Of a DNA stretch of 64,000 nucleotides, positions 32,346-38,171 are shown piece by piece. A model generated the notes under the pieces. It had not been told where the DNA came from, made no database searches, and saw only the letters and a list, made by a program, of their open reading frames with translations. The stretch is from Nitrospira sp. CG24D (lineage in GTDB: Bacteria > Nitrospirota > Nitrospiria > Nitrospirales > Nitrospiraceae). Every line of letters begins with the position of its first letter. The first letter of the stretch is position 1. The stretch lies in contig NEWQ02000013.1 of NCBI GenBank assembly GCA_002869855.2, forward strand, positions 1-64,000. The letters run 5' to 3'. A program made the translations under genes and the position numbers.

Positions 32346-33338
32346 CTAGCGGATCTGCTCCAGCACCGCCGCGGCCAGTAGCGGCAGCATGATTTCATGG
32401 TGACCGGTCAGTGTATACCCCTTGCCGCCTTTTTGAGTCGGGCGTCTCACCACATTCGTCAGGGGCCGGTAGTGCGAGAGAAAATCCATATTCACCGTGG
32501 TGATCTTGGTGAGCGGATGACCGAGATTACGCCCCAAGGACACCGTTTTCAAAAACACTTCCGGCAGAATGACGGCCGAGCCCACATTCAGATAGACCCC
32601 GCCTTCCATGCCGGCGACCACCGCGGCGAGCCGGCGAAAATCCAATAGAGAAGTGGCTCCGATAGCGGCGCCATCTGCGGCGGGATGCATGTGGATGATA
32701 TCCGTCCCGATCGCCACGTGTACGGTGACGGGAATGCCGAGCTTTGCGCCGGTGGCGAGAATACTCGTCGCGCGGTTGGGAAACTGGCCTTGATAGCGAT
32801 TGATGTAGTGCCCGACGGCTTCCCCGAGTCCCTGGCCGTGTTGTGCGCCGAGTGTGATGGCCTCGTTCAAAATGCGTCCGGTGTCTTCGGCCATGCCGAA
32901 GCGGCCTTCGTCGATCTCGGCGTCCACTTCTTCCGACGTGTGCCCCATGAGCGCCAGCTCGAAATCGTGAATAATTCCGGCTCCGTTCATGGCCACGGCG
33001 GTGACGATGCCGCGTTCCATGAGATCGACGAGGAGCGGCGCGAGGCCCACCTTGATTACATGGGCGCCGATGCCAATGATGACCGGGCGTCGCTGGCGAT
33101 GGGCCGTCGCGATCGCGGTCGCTACGGCGCGCATTGTCTTCACCGCGAGCAGATCAGGCAGCGATGCGAAGAATTGCTCGAACGACCCTCCGCGTTTCCA
33201 CGGCCGGGCGAAGTCGGACACCCGCACTTTGCTGTGACGCTTCCTCAGCGGATAGGTCGTCAGATCCGAGACATCGATCGGAGGAATCAGCGGACGCGCG
33301 GGGCGTTGAGGGGGAGTCCGGTTAGGACGCGGTGCCAA
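32346..33338 (-). CDS. Deoxyhypusine-synthase-like uncharacterised protein
   Basis: A 330-residue cytoplasmic protein. After a Pro/Arg-rich N-terminus, the core has GIGAHVIKVGLAPLLVDLMERGIVTAVAMNGAGIIHDFELALMG, VTVHVAIGTDIIHMHP, AGMEGGVYLNVGSAVILPEVFLK and GYTLTGHHEIMLPLLAAA. The pattern resembles a bacterial branch of the deoxyhypusine synthase fold, which in eukaryotes and archaea modifies eIF5A; bacteria lack that pathway, so a different NAD-dependent role is likely. The family name is by recollection of pattern, not a search. It overlaps gmhA by 17 bases on the same strand. Confidence 0.6.
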   Translation of the reverse strand: MAPRPNRTPPQRPARPLIPPIDVSDLTTYPLRKRHSKVRVSDFARPWKRGGSFEQFFASLPDLLAVKTMRAVATAIATAHRQRRPVIIGIGAHVIKVGLAPLLVDLMERGIVTAVAMNGAGIIHDFELALMGHTSEEVDAEIDEGRFGMAEDTGRILNEAITLGAQHGQGLGEAVGHYINRYQGQFPNRATSILATGAKLGIPVTVHVAIGTDIIHMHPAADGAAIGATSLLDFRRLAAVVAGMEGGVYLNVGSAVILPEVFLKTVSLGRNLGHPLTKITTVNMDFLSHYRPLTNVVRRPTQKGGKGYTLTGHHEIMLPLLAAAVLEQIR

Positions 33339-33955: not shown

Positions 33956-34906
33956 CTAGGCCTTCGGTGTCGGGGTCGGCGAGCCCTGCTTGATGGCGCT
34001 CATCGCCAGTGCGATCATCGAGCCCACGTCGGAGACGGTTGCCGGGAGAATGAGCGTATTGTTGGTCCTGGCCAACTCGCCGAATTTGGAGATGTATTGT
34101 TCTGCCACACGCAGCTGGACCGCTTCCTGTCCGCCGGGCACTTGAATGGTTTCGGCCACCTTGCGGAGTCCTTCGGCGGTGGCTTGGGCGATCGCGAGAA
34201 TGGCCGAGGCGGCGCCTTCGGCTTCATTGATCTGCTGCTGCTTCTTCGCTTCCGAGGCCTTGATCACTTGTTGCTTTTCACCCTCGGCTTGATTGATGGC
34301 AGCGTCGCGTTCGCCTTCCGATGTGAGGATGACGGCGCGCTTTTCCCGCTCTGCCCGCATCTGCTTTTCCATCGCATTGAGCACGTCTTTCGGCGGCGTG
34401 ATGTTCTTGATCTCGTAGCGTAGGACTTTGACTCCCCAGGGGTCTGAGGCCTTGTCGAGCTCGTTGACGACCTGGATATTAATGTTGGTCCGTTCCTCGA
34501 ACGTGCGGTCGAGTTCGATCTTCCCGATCTCGCTTCGCAGAGTGGTTTGGGCCAGCTGGATCAAGGCGAATCCGTAGTCGCTGATGCCATAGGACGCGCG
34601 CTGTGGATGCAAGACTTTGAGGTACAGGATGCCGTCCACCGAGACCTGAACGTTGTCGCGGGTGATACAAACCTGCTCGGGGATATCGATCGCGGTTTCT
34701 TTGAGCGAATGCTTGTAGCGGATGTTGTCGATGAAGGGGAGCAGGATGTGGAAGCCGGCGTCCAAGGTGGCCGAATACTTTCCCAGCCGCTCGACGACAT
34801 AGGCGCTTTGCTGCGGGACGACGACCGCCGTCTTTGCGAAGACGTAGATGACGAACAGGGCCAGCAACAGTGTGACCAGGAATCCGCCGCTCATACCACC
34901 ATCCAT
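33956..34906 (-). CDS. SPFH/stomatin-like membrane protease-associated protein (QmcA type)
   Basis: A 316-residue inner-membrane protein. One N-terminal helix (FLVTLLLALFVIYVFAKTAVVVPQQ) precedes a PHB/SPFH domain (AYVVERLGKYSATLDAGFHILLPFIDNIRYKHSLKETAIDIPEQ, ISDYGFALIQLAQTTLRSEIGKIELDRTFEER) and a helical coiled region rich in Ala/Gln/Glu (RAEREKRAVILTSEGERDAAINQAEGEKQQVI). It matches QmcA/YbbK proteins, which form large membrane rings and work with NfeD. The neighbouring gene is nfeD-like, as usual. GAGGACAAC precedes the ATG. Confidence 0.92.
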   Translation of the reverse strand: MDGGMSGGFLVTLLLALFVIYVFAKTAVVVPQQSAYVVERLGKYSATLDAGFHILLPFIDNIRYKHSLKETAIDIPEQVCITRDNVQVSVDGILYLKVLHPQRASYGISDYGFALIQLAQTTLRSEIGKIELDRTFEERTNINIQVVNELDKASDPWGVKVLRYEIKNITPPKDVLNAMEKQMRAEREKRAVILTSEGERDAAINQAEGEKQQVIKASEAKKQQQINEAEGAASAILAIAQATAEGLRKVAETIQVPGGQEAVQLRVAEQYISKFGELARTNNTLILPATVSDVGSMIALAMSAIKQGSPTPTPKA

Positions 34907-34934: not shown

Positions 34935-35369
34935 CTATTCGCCGGTAATCAATAGCGTCAGACCGTCTATGCCGGTGACTTTGCTTCGCTGTCCCTTCAT
35001 TAACGGGGTGAGGCCGGCATTCTTCGCTGACCAGGTGGTGCCTCTGAGCTCGACTTTTCCGATGGCTCCGACGGCCAGCGTTTCTACGGGAATGGCGATT
35101 TCGCCCATCATCGAATCAACGTCGGGATGTTTCACTTCTGCGGCATTGATACGGGCCAGCAGAGGTCCGCGAAACACCAGCAATGACGCGATGGCGATGC
35201 CGGAGAAGAGCAGCCATTGGGCGGACTCTCCCGGGACGAGTTCCAGCCACGCGATGGCTCCGACCACCAGGGCGGCAAGGCCGAAGAAGAGAATATAGAA
35301 CCCGCCGGGGGTCATCATCTCGGCGCCCGACAGGAGCAACCCGAGCAAAAGCCAGTACCACCAGGTCAT
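34935..35369 (-). CDS. NfeD family membrane protein
   Basis: A 144-residue inner-membrane protein. Two or three hydrophobic segments (WWYWLLLGLLLSGAEMM, FYILFFGLAALVVGAIAWL, LLFSGIAIASLLVF) are followed by a C-terminal OB-fold-like domain (MGEIAIPVETLAVGAIGKVELRGTTWSAKN). It is the short NfeD form (NfeD1b) that normally pairs with an SPFH protein, here its immediate downstream neighbour. The ATG at 35369 has GAGG seven bases upstream; the longer frame is not used. Confidence 0.88.
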   Translation of the reverse strand: MTWWYWLLLGLLLSGAEMMTPGGFYILFFGLAALVVGAIAWLELVPGESAQWLLFSGIAIASLLVFRGPLLARINAAEVKHPDVDSMMGEIAIPVETLAVGAIGKVELRGTTWSAKNAGLTPLMKGQRSKVTGIDGLTLLITGE

Positions 35370-35480
35370 TGTAGAACCTCGCCTTGTGTGGTGAGCGAGC
35401 ACAGAGGCATGGATAATGGAGGAAAGTCTAAGCCGGTTTCCGGAGACCGTCAAGCAGAACGGACATTACCCGGCTGAGAA

Positions 35481-35509
35481 TTGATCACCTCTCCGGCCGA
35501 TGCTATAGT
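35481..35509 (+). promoter_or_regulatory. Promoter placed for a leaderless transcript (CARF gene)
   Basis: TTGATC (35481-35486) and TATAGT (35504-35509) are 17 bases apart, and the -10 box ends nine bases before the ATG at 35519. Transcription would begin at or within a few bases of the start codon. There is no Shine-Dalgarno. Confidence 0.55.
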
Positions 35510-35518
35510 CCGCGCGCA

Positions 35519-36775
35519 ATGGCTCACGAACAACCCACGAAGGTGTTGCTGGTCGCGTTTACCGACAATGCGGCGGCGGCGGTCTATGCCATCAATCGGC
35601 TCCAGCCGGAGGCGCTCTGCTTTGTGTTGCCGGAATCCGCGAAGGCATTAGTGGAGTCGGCCGTTCAACCGAACATTGAGCATATGCCCAGGCGCTGGGA
35701 TTGGGTCGTACTGGCCGATACGATCAATGTGGCAGTCTGCCATCACGCGCTGGCTGGTGCGCTGCCGGACTTGCTGAAGACGTGGGATGTCCACTCCGGC
35801 GATCTGGTGCTCGATCTCACCGGCGCCACTCCGGCCATGGCCGGGGCGCTGACGCTGGTGACGCTCCCGATTAGTTCACGAACGGTGGCGCTGCTGCCGT
35901 GGAGCGAGGGGGAGGAGAGTGAACCGATTCCCCTCAATGGCCGGTCAATGCGCTGGGCACAGGGCAATCTTTGGGACGATGTGGCGCTGGTCTCACGGCA
36001 TGAGGCCGCCGAGCTGTTTAATCGAGGAATGTATCAGGCCTCGGCCAGACTGTTTCGCGAGATTGAGGCCAGGGTGAGCGGGGGACAGAAGCCGACCTAT
36101 CGCGCCTTTGCCGATCTCGCCGAGGGCTATGAATTCTGGGAGCGATTTCACTATCGGCAGGCCTGGGACAAATTGAAGACCGCCACGAAAGCATTAGAAA
36201 TGGCGTCGCTCTGGGGCGGCCCGCCGGGATTGAAAGCCGTCCTGCCGGGGATCAAAGCCAACGCCGGCTTCCTCGAACGCCTCGTGCTCGATCCCGCTGC
36301 GGTCAAAGATTCGCTGAGTCTCGATCTGTTCGCGCACGTGAGTCGTCGCCTCCATATGGCTCATGATCCTGAAGCGGCGATGATCGCTCTGGTGCGCGCA
36401 CTCGAAGCGTTTGCCCAGCGGCAGCTGTTTAAACAATACAAGATCAAGACGTGGGATGTGCAGCCGGAGCAGCTCCCGCAGATACTTCAAGAAGCCTGCC
36501 GGACATCCTGGTTGAACGATGTCGACGGGAAGTACAACATGCCGCGGCAGAGTCAGTTCCGTGCACTCGCGGAACTGGGCGATCCACTGGGCCACGCGTT
36601 TGTGCGCGAGTGGCCGACCATGAAACCGCTGCTCGACGCCGCCAATCAGAGCGTGCTCGGCCACGGTTTTGAGCCGGTCAAGGCCGAACGGGTGCAACAG
36701 TTATACGACATCGTCTTGAAGTTGACCGGGGTCTCCGAGAGTTCCTTGCCGAAGTTCCCGACGCTCGCGCTCTAA
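35519..36775 (+). CDS. Orphan CARF-type protein, Cas02710-like (TIGR02710)
   Basis: A 418-residue cytoplasmic protein. Residues 1-130 form a Rossmann-like CARF domain: a first strand VLLVAFTDNAAAAVYAI and the family motif DLVLDLTGATPAMAGALT (residues 95-112), which resembles the D-x-TGGT-x-xM loop that contacts cyclic oligoadenylate in CRISPR ring-nucleotide sensors. Residues 160-235 are helical. The C-terminal half matches the Cas02710 second domain (HDPEAAMIALVRALEAFAQRQL, FRALAELGDPLG, AANQSVLGHGFEPV). In relatives the last motif is commonly RNxSILAHG, the HEPN RNase arginine; here Ala replaces Arg. No CRISPR array or cas gene is present. The family call is by pattern; no ligand is proven. 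Confidence 0.75.
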   Translation: MAHEQPTKVLLVAFTDNAAAAVYAINRLQPEALCFVLPESAKALVESAVQPNIEHMPRRWDWVVLADTINVAVCHHALAGALPDLLKTWDVHSGDLVLDLTGATPAMAGALTLVTLPISSRTVALLPWSEGEESEPIPLNGRSMRWAQGNLWDDVALVSRHEAAELFNRGMYQASARLFREIEARVSGGQKPTYRAFADLAEGYEFWERFHYRQAWDKLKTATKALEMASLWGGPPGLKAVLPGIKANAGFLERLVLDPAAVKDSLSLDLFAHVSRRLHMAHDPEAAMIALVRALEAFAQRQLFKQYKIKTWDVQPEQLPQILQEACRTSWLNDVDGKYNMPRQSQFRALAELGDPLGHAFVREWPTMKPLLDAANQSVLGHGFEPVKAERVQQLYDIVLKLTGVSESSLPKFPTLAL

Positions 36776-36780
36776 TCTAC

Positions 36781-37191
36781 ATGGAAGTCAAAATTTACTA
36801 CGAAGACACAGACTGTGGCGGGGTGGTGTACTACGCCAACTATCTGAAATATTTTGAACGGGCGCGGACGCACTATCTTGAAGAGCGGGGGCTGTCGGTG
36901 TCCGGCCTGATGAACCAAGGGACGGTGTTCGTGGTCGTGCATGCGGAGTTAGACTATCGGTCCCCCGCGCGCTATGGCGACACCTTGTTTATCGACACAG
37001 TTTTGTCAGACATGAGCGCCGCCTCTTTCACGTTTACACATGTCGTGAAAGAGAAAAGGAGCGGGCGCGTGATCGTGGAAGGGTCTGCTCGACTGGCCTC
37101 GACGGATGGCAACGGCAAGGTAAAGCGTCTCGACAAGGCGGTCGTCGCCGTACTACAGTCCGGAGCCGATAAGGAGTCATTGAATGGATAA
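36781..37191 (+). CDS. ybgC: Acyl-CoA thioesterase YbgC
   Basis: A 136-residue hotdog-fold thioesterase usually linked to the Tol-Pal envelope system. The start YYEDTDCGGVVYYANYLKYFERARTHYLEERG carries the catalytic Asp and the family signature. Length is standard. It begins five bases after the CARF-type gene, so the two are probably co-transcribed. No tol-pal genes are nearby in the window. Confidence 0.93.
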   Translation: MEVKIYYEDTDCGGVVYYANYLKYFERARTHYLEERGLSVSGLMNQGTVFVVVHAELDYRSPARYGDTLFIDTVLSDMSAASFTFTHVVKEKRSGRVIVEGSARLASTDGNGKVKRLDKAVVAVLQSGADKESLNG

Positions 37192-37298: not shown

Positions 37299-38171
37299 TC
37301 AGCGAAGCCGCGCGCTTCTTTGTCCAGCGCCTTCCGCATCACGATTCACGGGTTTGTCTTCCGTAGCAAGAGAAGCACGTTGCTGGGATTCCTGGGGCCA
37401 TTCGTCCTGGCTCCGTGATGGTCCTAATTTATGCGTTAGGAAGCGGATTTCAGGATACTGTTCGGCCAGATAGCGAAGCAGTGCGTGAATGAAAAGGATG
37501 ACTCCCGCCATCTCCAGGCTTTCTTCGAGATGGGCGAACAATTGATAGGTCAGATTTTCAAAGCTATGTAATTCGGCCTGTCGCCCGCCAAGCATTTCGA
37601 TGCCTATGGCCCCACCAAGGTAGAGCGAACCGGCGATCATGAAGGACCACCGTGTGGATGACGGAAGGCGGGAAAGGAATCCCAGGAACAGCAATCCCAG
37701 GAGCACCACACCAGCCATCGCAGGAATAATCCAGGCGAAATAGAAAATCCCCAGGTCGCCGTGCCCCAGCAGGCCGCGCACCGGTTCAATCAGCCTCTCA
37801 TGAAGTGACCAGCCCTCATCCGTTGCCAAGTAGAAAAATCCCCCGGCGAGGATCATCCACTTCGAGACATCAGGGTCTTGACGGTGCCGTTTCAGTAGGG
37901 CAATCAGGACCAGCAGGGCGCCTGAGCAGAGCAGGAGCGTCACGGAAAACAGGGTGGAGATGTTCTGTTCGAGATCGACGTGAAAGAGTTGTTCTGTTAT
38001 GGGTAGCAACCCGTACACGTAGTCATGGCCTAGTCCATATCGGAGGAATTGGCTTGTGAGGCTCAATAACACCAAGCTGGAAGCCACGCTCGCGAGGATG
38101 AAAGTGATGCGGCTCGGCTGTAGAAGGATCGAGGCTGGTATCTTGTTGTTGGAAGGATTCTGATTGTCCAT
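37299..38171 (-). CDS. Polytopic membrane protein of unknown function
   Basis: A 290-residue protein with six or seven predicted helices, including SSLVLLSLTSQFLRYGLG, LFSVTLLLCSGALLVLIALL and IIPAMAGVVLLGLLFLGFL. Two motifs stand out: ATDEGWSLHERL between helices, and FAHLEESLEMAGVILFIHALL near the end. The pairing of Asp/Glu and His in or next to membrane helices could bind a metal. I do not recognise a named family. The final 50 residues are polar. It converges tail-to-tail with the small membrane protein and ends one base from it. Confidence 0.75.
   Translation of the reverse strand: MDNQNPSNNKIPASILLQPSRITFILASVASSLVLLSLTSQFLRYGLGHDYVYGLLPITEQLFHVDLEQNISTLFSVTLLLCSGALLVLIALLKRHRQDPDVSKWMILAGGFFYLATDEGWSLHERLIEPVRGLLGHGDLGIFYFAWIIPAMAGVVLLGLLFLGFLSRLPSSTRWSFMIAGSLYLGGAIGIEMLGGRQAELHSFENLTYQLFAHLEESLEMAGVILFIHALLRYLAEQYPEIRFLTHKLGPSRSQDEWPQESQQRASLATEDKPVNRDAEGAGQRSARLR

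What the first reader, a model, noticed from the sequence alone, without database searches (positions are those of the whole stretch)
35519..36775. Orphan Cas02710/CARF-like protein outside any CRISPR locus
The sequence shows a Rossmann-like N-terminus with DLVLDLTGATPAM, the pattern of CARF domains that bind cyclic oligoadenylates, and a Cas02710-like C-terminal half, yet no CRISPR repeat or cas gene is seen anywhere in the window and its neighbour is ybgC. It could be a cyclic-nucleotide-controlled effector or a housekeeping sensor that has left CRISPR. The Arg usually found in the RNxSILAHG stretch of relatives is replaced by Ala (AANQSVLGHG, residues 374-383), so if that stretch is a HEPN RNase site, this copy is probably inactive and may act by binding only.
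Basis: partly seen in the sequence, partly recalled or inferred. Interest (0 to 1): 0.68.

Follow-up and report, generated by a model that had tools for sequence, protein, structure and literature searches.

The report
Defused CRISPR alarm protein turned housekeeping
A protein built like Csm6, the RNA-cutting alarm enzyme of type III CRISPR immunity, is a permanent single-copy gene in nearly all genomes sampled from the main families of the bacterial order Nitrospirales; it has lost the residues known to be needed to sense the alarm signal and to cut RNA, so an immune effector appears to have been re-used for an unknown everyday job that databases still label as defence.

Summary
Observation confirmed, interpretation partly supported. 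ORF 35519-36775 encodes a CARF-6H-HEPN protein (TIGR02710, PF09670, PF22205; AlphaFold pLDDT 93.6; best PDB match Thermus Csm6). It is not a stray copy. Orthologs occur once per genome in 61/62 Nitrospiraceae and 15/16 genomes of sister family f3, upstream of ybgC, under purifying selection (dN/dS 0.11-0.19). In 106 distinct Nitrospirales sequences the HEPN Arg is never present and the CARF GTK lysine is never present; the first CARF glycine motif is eroded too. In Thermus Csm6, mutating that Lys abolishes cA4 binding and mutating that Arg abolishes RNase activity. A sister clade in another Nitrospirota class keeps the motifs but sits beside rho or hem genes, and more distant relatives sit in csm operons: a three-step series from CRISPR effector to core gene. 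Cas10 and CD-NTases are absent from the host genome and rare in the order; the host's CRISPR is type I-C. Nitrospirales copies share a fixed extended -10 promoter (TGnTATAGT) about 9 nt before the start codon with no Shine-Dalgarno, implying leaderless mRNA. Best reading: an exapted, catalytically dead, cOA-blind Csm6 relative acting by binding RNA or protein; partner unknown.

The parts
35519..36775 (+). CARF-6H-HEPN protein, 418 aa, degenerate Csm6/TIGR02710 relative
35519..35968 (+). CARF domain (residues 1-150), Rossmann-like
   Evidence: model m8f38ea1940a3; VIA-align Z 15.2, rmsd 2.0, 122 aligned to Can2 CARF over residues 7-150
35813..35839 (+). Degenerate CARF motif II, DLTGATPAM (residues 99-107); GGTK of relatives replaced by GATP
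   Evidence: Lys at residue 105 in 0/106 Nitrospirales, 4/4 f20, 11/11 other relatives
35987..36202 (+). Csm6 6H domain (residues 157-228); this and the following linker are the most constrained part of the gene
   Evidence: PF22205; dN/dS 0.03-0.10 over residues 151-267
36320..36727 (+). HEPN domain (residues 268-403)
   Evidence: PF09670
36638..36667 (+). Degenerate HEPN motif AANQSVLGHG (residues 374-383); catalytic Arg of RNxSILAHG replaced by Ala375, His382 kept
35481..35486 (+). -35-like element TTGATC, 17 bp upstream of the -10
35501..35510 (+). Extended -10 promoter element TGCTATAGTC, 9 nt from TATAGT to the ATG, no Shine-Dalgarno: predicted leaderless transcript
   Evidence: TGnTATAGT upstream of 101/106 orthologs at 6-10 nt from a start codon; single match in the window
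36781..37191 (+). YbgC-like 4HBT acyl-CoA thioesterase, probably co-transcribed; conserved downstream neighbour
34935..35453 (-). NfeD-like protein, divergent neighbour in many Nitrospiraceae
   Evidence: PF01957; synteny
33956..34906 (-). SPFH/Band 7 stomatin-like protein (QmcA type)
   Evidence: PF01145, PF16200; synteny

Best explanation
The gene is a former type III CRISPR effector (Csm6/TIGR02710 type: CARF sensor, 6H linker, HEPN ribonuclease) that became a vertically inherited housekeeping gene of the order Nitrospirales. It probably keeps the Csm6-type fold and, by analogy, a homodimer, but has lost the lysine and glycines of the cyclic-oligoadenylate pocket and the HEPN catalytic arginine. 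So it neither senses cOA nor cuts RNA by the Csm6 mechanism. It is made from its own conserved extended -10 promoter, probably as a leaderless mRNA together with a YbgC-type thioesterase. It most likely acts as a binding protein: the HEPN groove and the highly conserved 6H region hold an RNA or a protein partner. Shown by sequence: ancestry, fold prediction, distribution, synteny, purifying selection, motif loss, promoter conservation. Inferred: loss of both activities (transferred from Thermus Csm6 mutants), dimerisation, leaderless transcription, the binding role. Unknown: the partner.
For: Family and fold: (Thermus Csm6 Z 21.6, 378 residues aligned, rmsd 7.4). Core gene: 48/59 relatives, nearly always single copy; in the phylum draw 61/62 Nitrospiraceae and 15/16 of family f3. 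Conserved synteny with ybgC in f1, f2 and f3. Purifying selection, dN/dS 0.11-0.19, HEPN 0.10-0.26. Motif loss in 106 distinct sequences: Lys105 0, Arg375 0, against 4/4 and 11/11 in relatives. Thermus K137A loses cA4 binding; R415A, N416A or H422A each abolish RNase (PMC10897365; residue mapping). Intermediates: f20 clade keeps the motifs beside rho/prfA/murA or hem genes; L141 and L142 lie in csm operons. Tree: f20 plus Nitrospirales SH-aLRT 100, Nitrospirales 100. No Cas10, mCpol or SMODS in the host genome. Promoter.
Against: No biochemical or expression data. His382 is kept in 102/106 and Asn376 in 73/106, which a purely structural domain need not keep. The protein and its CARF domain are net acidic, no argument for RNA binding overall, although the 6H and HEPN parts are slightly basic. 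Some Nitrospirales do encode Cas10 (G052, G253). Families f2 (mostly) and f4 lack the gene, so it is not indispensable to every lineage. The tree root is a midpoint and long branches make deep joins uncertain.
Confidence: 0.62

Rival explanations
1. The CARF domain has switched ligand: a housekeeping nucleotide (not cOA) binds a remodelled pocket and the HEPN half passes the signal to a partner, so the protein is a metabolic sensor.
For: The CARF fold is predicted intact and under constraint (dN/dS 0.14-0.22). Asp99 and Thr/Ser101 of motif II are kept, and Trp60-Asp61-Trp62, Asn150 and Trp152 are almost invariant in Nitrospirales.
Against: CARF is the least conserved domain (mean identity to the query 57% against 68-73% elsewhere); glycine motif I and the RTKxG loop are gone; no ligand-synthase gene is linked.
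Confidence: 0.2
2. It is still a cOA-activated antiviral RNase working with a variant pocket and active site.
For: Family membership, His382 conserved in 102/106, PADLOC lists it as a defence model.
Against: Lys and Arg equivalents that are each essential in Thermus Csm6 (PMC10897365) are absent in 106/106. Cas10 is absent from the host genome and found in few relatives, mCpol in 1/59, SMODS in 8/59. Near-universal vertical single-copy inheritance is unlike defence genes. Nitrospira G253 keeps this copy and also an intact RNSSWLAHG copy (L144).
Confidence: 0.08
3. It is a non-canonical RNase: HEPN His382 with other conserved residues (Arg276, Arg293) cuts a specific cellular RNA without the motif Arg, as a processing enzyme.
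For: His382 mostly kept; Arg276 and Arg293 near-invariant; HEPN families lacking Arg but keeping His are described (PMC3710099).
Against: Arg276 and Arg293 are equally conserved in active relatives, so not new. Three f3 members have Q, N or Y at the His position and an f1-clade member has R, yet the gene persists. Arg or His mutation abolishes activity in studied Csm6 proteins.
Confidence: 0.08
4. It is a decoy that forms mixed dimers with active Csm6 proteins and dampens type III immunity.
For: Csm6 acts as a dimer (PMC9704534) and this copy looks dead at both sites.
Against: Most Nitrospirales with the gene have neither Cas10 nor another Csm6 to dampen.
Confidence: 0.02

Closest known systems
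TIGR02710 family CRISPR-associated CARF protein (PF09670 + PF22205)
   Same: Full-length match above the NCBIfam cut-off, same CARF-6H-HEPN order, same predicted fold
   Different: Scores 106.8 bits against 177-210 for intact relatives; both functional motifs degenerate; not CRISPR-linked; core gene of an order
Thermus thermophilus Csm6 (PDB 5fsh, 8jbb, 8jh1)
   Same: Best structural match, Z 21.6 over 378 residues at rmsd 7.4; best profile match in the PDB, 4.6e-15
   Different: K137 of Csm6 is Pro105 here and R415 is Ala375; each is required for function in Csm6
PADLOC PDLC01812 CARF1--CARF_HEPN
   Same: Effectively this very family: 737.7 bits here and 832.1 for N. defluvii over 418/418 positions
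   Different: Catalogued as a candidate defence protein, whereas distribution and residues speak for a non-defence core gene
f20 clade orthologs (another class of Nitrospirota; L135-L138)
   Same: Sister group in the tree (SH-aLRT 100), 36-39% identity, also outside CRISPR loci
   Different: Intact GTKPM and RNxSxLAHG; beside rho/prfA/murA/NAD kinase or hem genes instead of ybgC; two of the genomes also hold Csm1 elsewhere
Arg-less HEPN families such as HEPN-T Parep (PMC3710099)
   Same: HEPN that lacks R but keeps H
   Different: Not fused to CARF, archaeal, unrelated context

Membership tests
TIGR02710 / Cas_Cas02710 CARF-HEPN | Score above curated model cut-off over the full length | tested here: met
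   106.8 bits against 83.9, residues 21-403 of the protein to 3-381 of 384; PF09670 and PF22205 above cut-off
Csm6/Csx1 cOA-activated RNase | CARF-6H-HEPN fold | tested here: met
   pLDDT 93.6, pTM 0.85; Thermus Csm6 Z 21.6, rmsd 7.4, aligned 378
Csm6/Csx1 cOA-activated RNase | CARF motif II GTK with ligand-binding lysine, and glycine motif I | tested here: not met
   Lys in 0/106 Nitrospirales; residue 103 never Gly; residue 15 Gly in only 4/106
Csm6/Csx1 cOA-activated RNase | R-X4-6-H catalytic motif in HEPN | tested here: not met
   Arg in 0/106; His kept in 102/106
Csm6/Csx1 cOA-activated RNase | Encoded with, or beside, a Cas10 cyclase | tested here: not met
   Cas10 absent in own genome (assembly 90% complete); csm genes not among its conserved neighbours
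Csm6/Csx1 cOA-activated RNase | Binds cOA and cuts ssRNA | not testable with these tools
   Needs purified protein
Ring nuclease (Crn1 type) | Motif I Ser/Thr and motif II Lys as in Sso2081 and Thermus Csm6 | tested here: not met
   Motif II Lys lost in 106/106 and motif I eroded; roles in PMC10897365
Antiviral defence gene (PADLOC) | Patchy, mobile distribution in defence loci | tested here: not met
   Present in 76/78 genomes of families f1 and f3; conserved synteny; no phage record and only distant plasmid matches, under 30% identity in the rows shown

The most novel reading that the evidence does not exclude
A type III CRISPR effector has been fully domesticated: Nitrospirales re-use a defused Csm6 scaffold as a growth-linked core protein (leaderless, own promoter, coupled to ybgC) that binds RNA or a protein partner, with surviving f20 intermediates showing the order of events (leave the locus first, lose sensing and catalysis later).
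Probability: 0.4. Interest if true: 0.78.

Novelty: new variant of a known kind. Interest (0 to 1): 0.62.

Why it matters
It would be a traceable case of a CRISPR signalling effector becoming a permanent non-immune gene of a whole bacterial order, with intermediates still alive, in nitrifiers that matter for wastewater treatment and soil nitrogen cycling. It also warns that defence-finding databases (PADLOC model PDLC01812, NCBIfam TIGR02710) label a core gene of nearly every Nitrospira as a CRISPR effector. And it makes testable what a Csm6 scaffold is good for once sensing and cutting are removed.

Tried and rejected
CRISPR array in the window: none. Linked cas genes: none in the window; Cas9-Cas1 lies near the ortholog in G052 and G050, absent near other f3 orthologs inspected, so taken as chance. 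phmmer of the single sequence against the PDB gave only noise; the alignment profile was needed. Weak Cas10-palm hits in G001, G032 and G055 (25-28 bits, frames of about 500 aa) are probably not Cas10: TIGR02578 gave only a weak N-terminal hit of about 30 bits there, of the kind seen in nearly every genome. Degenerate copy as a local sequencing error or pseudogene: rejected, same changes in 106 distinct sequences with open frames. Decoy for active Csm6: rejected on co-occurrence. Mobile or phage origin in Nitrospira: no phage match, distant plasmid matches only. The CARF superfamily classification paper (10.1093/nar/gkaa635) is not held, so whether it comments on this group could not be checked. 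Full-text searches found no paper discussing CARF proteins of Nitrospira as core genes. Spread beyond Nitrospirota was not searched systematically; the genome contigs pattern scan for close relatives returned only Nitrospira/Nitrospirota records, plus one labelled uncultured Nitrosospira.

Full report
What is there. The window holds an intact 418-aa ORF at 35519-36775 (+). It matches TIGR02710 (106.8 bits, cut-off 83.9), the Csm6 HEPN and 6H domains of Pfam and several PADLOC CARF-HEPN models, one of them (PDLC01812) over its whole length at 737.7 bits. AlphaFold gives a confident model (mean pLDDT 93.6, pTM 0.85). Its best solved relatives are Thermus thermophilus Csm6 structures (Foldseek 2.4e-13; VIA-align Z 21.6, rmsd 7.4, 378 aligned). 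A profile of the family finds the same Csm6 at 4.6e-15.

It is a core gene, not an orphan copy. Among 59 related genomes 48 carry it. The misses are one Nitrospira, the families labelled f4 (all) and f2 (most). In the phylum-wide draw it is in 61 of 62 Nitrospiraceae and 15 of 16 genomes of family f3, nearly always once (counted). Its neighbour ybgC follows on the same strand in f1, f2 and f3, often 0-30 nt away; the nfeD and stomatin-like genes diverge upstream in many Nitrospiraceae. dN/dS against close relatives is 0.11-0.19 for the gene, 0.03-0.10 for 6H plus linker and 0.10-0.26 for HEPN, comparable to its neighbour nfeD (0.15-0.24) and looser than ybgC (0.05-0.11). So the dead-looking HEPN is still being preserved.

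Sensing and cutting residues are gone. In 106 distinct Nitrospirales sequences the HEPN arginine is Ala in 101 and never Arg; His382 is kept in 102 (exceptions R, Q, N, Y). The CARF motif DYTGGTKxM of relatives has become DxTGATPAM: the lysine is never present, the second glycine never present. The first glycine motif (SVGGTPEP) and the RTKxG loop are also lost. The HMMER alignment to Thermus Csm6 puts K137 opposite residue 105 and R415/N416/H422 opposite 375/376/382. In that enzyme K137A loses cA4 binding and all RNase activity, and R415A, N416A or H422A each abolish RNase activity (PMC10897365). Loss of activity here is inferred from those mutants, not measured.

How it got there. A clade in another class of Nitrospirota (labelled f20; L135-L138) is sister to the Nitrospirales proteins (joint clade SH-aLRT 100, Nitrospirales clade 100; root by midpoint). 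It keeps GGTKPM (the first glycine reads Cys in L138) and RNxSxLAHG, yet sits beside NAD kinase, rho, prfA, murA and hisG, or hem genes, not in a CRISPR locus (NAD kinase and Rho confirmed by model, the others read from the ORFs). Two of those genomes have a type III-A system elsewhere with different CARF effectors nearby. More distant relatives with intact motifs lie inside csm operons, with csm3, csm4, csm5 and cas10 identified by model in L141; L142 looks the same from its ORFs. The simplest order of events is: effector in a csm operon, then relocation to a housekeeping site with active residues, then loss of sensing and catalysis at the base of Nitrospirales. Other orders of the same class lack the gene in the 11 genomes drawn, so transfer between f20 and Nitrospirales cannot be excluded.

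No signal to sense. The host genome (90% complete) has no Cas10 by three models, no mCpol and no SMODS nucleotidyltransferase. Its CRISPR is type I-C on another contig. Across 59 relatives Cas10 palm hits occur in 5; of these, TIGR02578 confirmed G052, did not support G001, G032 or G055, and was not run on G056. Nitrospira G253, outside that set, has Csm1 and an intact TIGR02710 copy besides the degenerate one.

An unexpected conserved promoter. Upstream of the start codon in 101 of 106 orthologs stands TGnTATAGT, usually followed by C, ending 6-10 nt (mostly 9) from the start codon, often with a TTGAAC or TTGATC -35. Shine-Dalgarno-like sequence is nearly absent (4 of 115 sequences; 246 of 1025 among ORFs of the same loci, where the starts were not curated). 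The shuffled control gives about 4 of 115 with a -10-like hexamer, observed 107. In the window TGnTATAGTC occurs once, here; genome-wide TGnTATAGT within 7-10 nt of an ATG occurs 6 times. This geometry predicts a leaderless or nearly leaderless mRNA. The GC-rich stretch after the -10 resembles discriminators of growth-controlled promoters (established knowledge; inference for this gene). Several f20 genes show a similar -10-like sequence close to the start, while many of the other relatives have a Shine-Dalgarno-like purine run (by eye).

Most likely mechanism. The protein is best read as an exapted, cOA-blind, catalytically dead Csm6 scaffold, probably dimeric, that acts by binding. The 6H region and HEPN are the conserved parts and are slightly basic, which fits RNA or protein binding without proving either. 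Residues near-invariant only in Nitrospirales (for example Trp60-Asp61-Trp62, Trp146, Pro192, Asp258-Pro259, Lys310, Trp312) mark where a new function may lie. A ligand switch of the CARF domain is the main rival.

Known or new. The family is catalogued (TIGR02710, PADLOC), but as defence. Full-text searches found no paper treating it as a core gene, and the main CARF classification paper could not be read here. I file it as a new variant of a known kind.

Noticed in passing
32346-33338 (-): Protein with a sub-threshold deoxyhypusine-synthase match (PF01916, 22.2 bits, cut-off 27), conserved next to a SIS-domain gene across Nitrospirales: an odd eukaryote/archaea-like enzyme relative in bacteria.
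   Followed up: no
L096:9401-14046 and L100:1-4201: Cas9-Cas1 genes (with a Cas2-like ORF in L096) lie a few kb from the ortholog in two f3 genomes, absent near the other f3 orthologs inspected; probably chance insertion.
   Followed up: partly
L144:7382-8701 (genome G253): A Nitrospira genome with type III-A Csm1 carries a second, intact TIGR02710-like protein (RNSSWLAHG) besides the degenerate core copy.
   Followed up: partly
L165:10092-13473 (own genome, contig C67): Type I-C CRISPR-Cas locus with only five repeat copies found (GTAGCGCCCGTCCTTCGGGGCGGGCGAGGATTGAAAC).
   Followed up: no
L172:3966-5111 and L173:4613-5740: Csm loci of f20 genomes have other CARF effectors next to them (CARF5-type; CARF4-PDDEXK), while their TIGR02710 protein sits at a housekeeping locus.
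   Followed up: partly
37299-38171 (-): Apparent membrane protein downstream of ybgC without any Pfam match; present in only some close Nitrospira relatives.
   Followed up: no
G021:C77:212-559: One Nitrospira genome has an mCpol (minimal CRISPR polymerase) gene, 75.4 bits.
   Followed up: no
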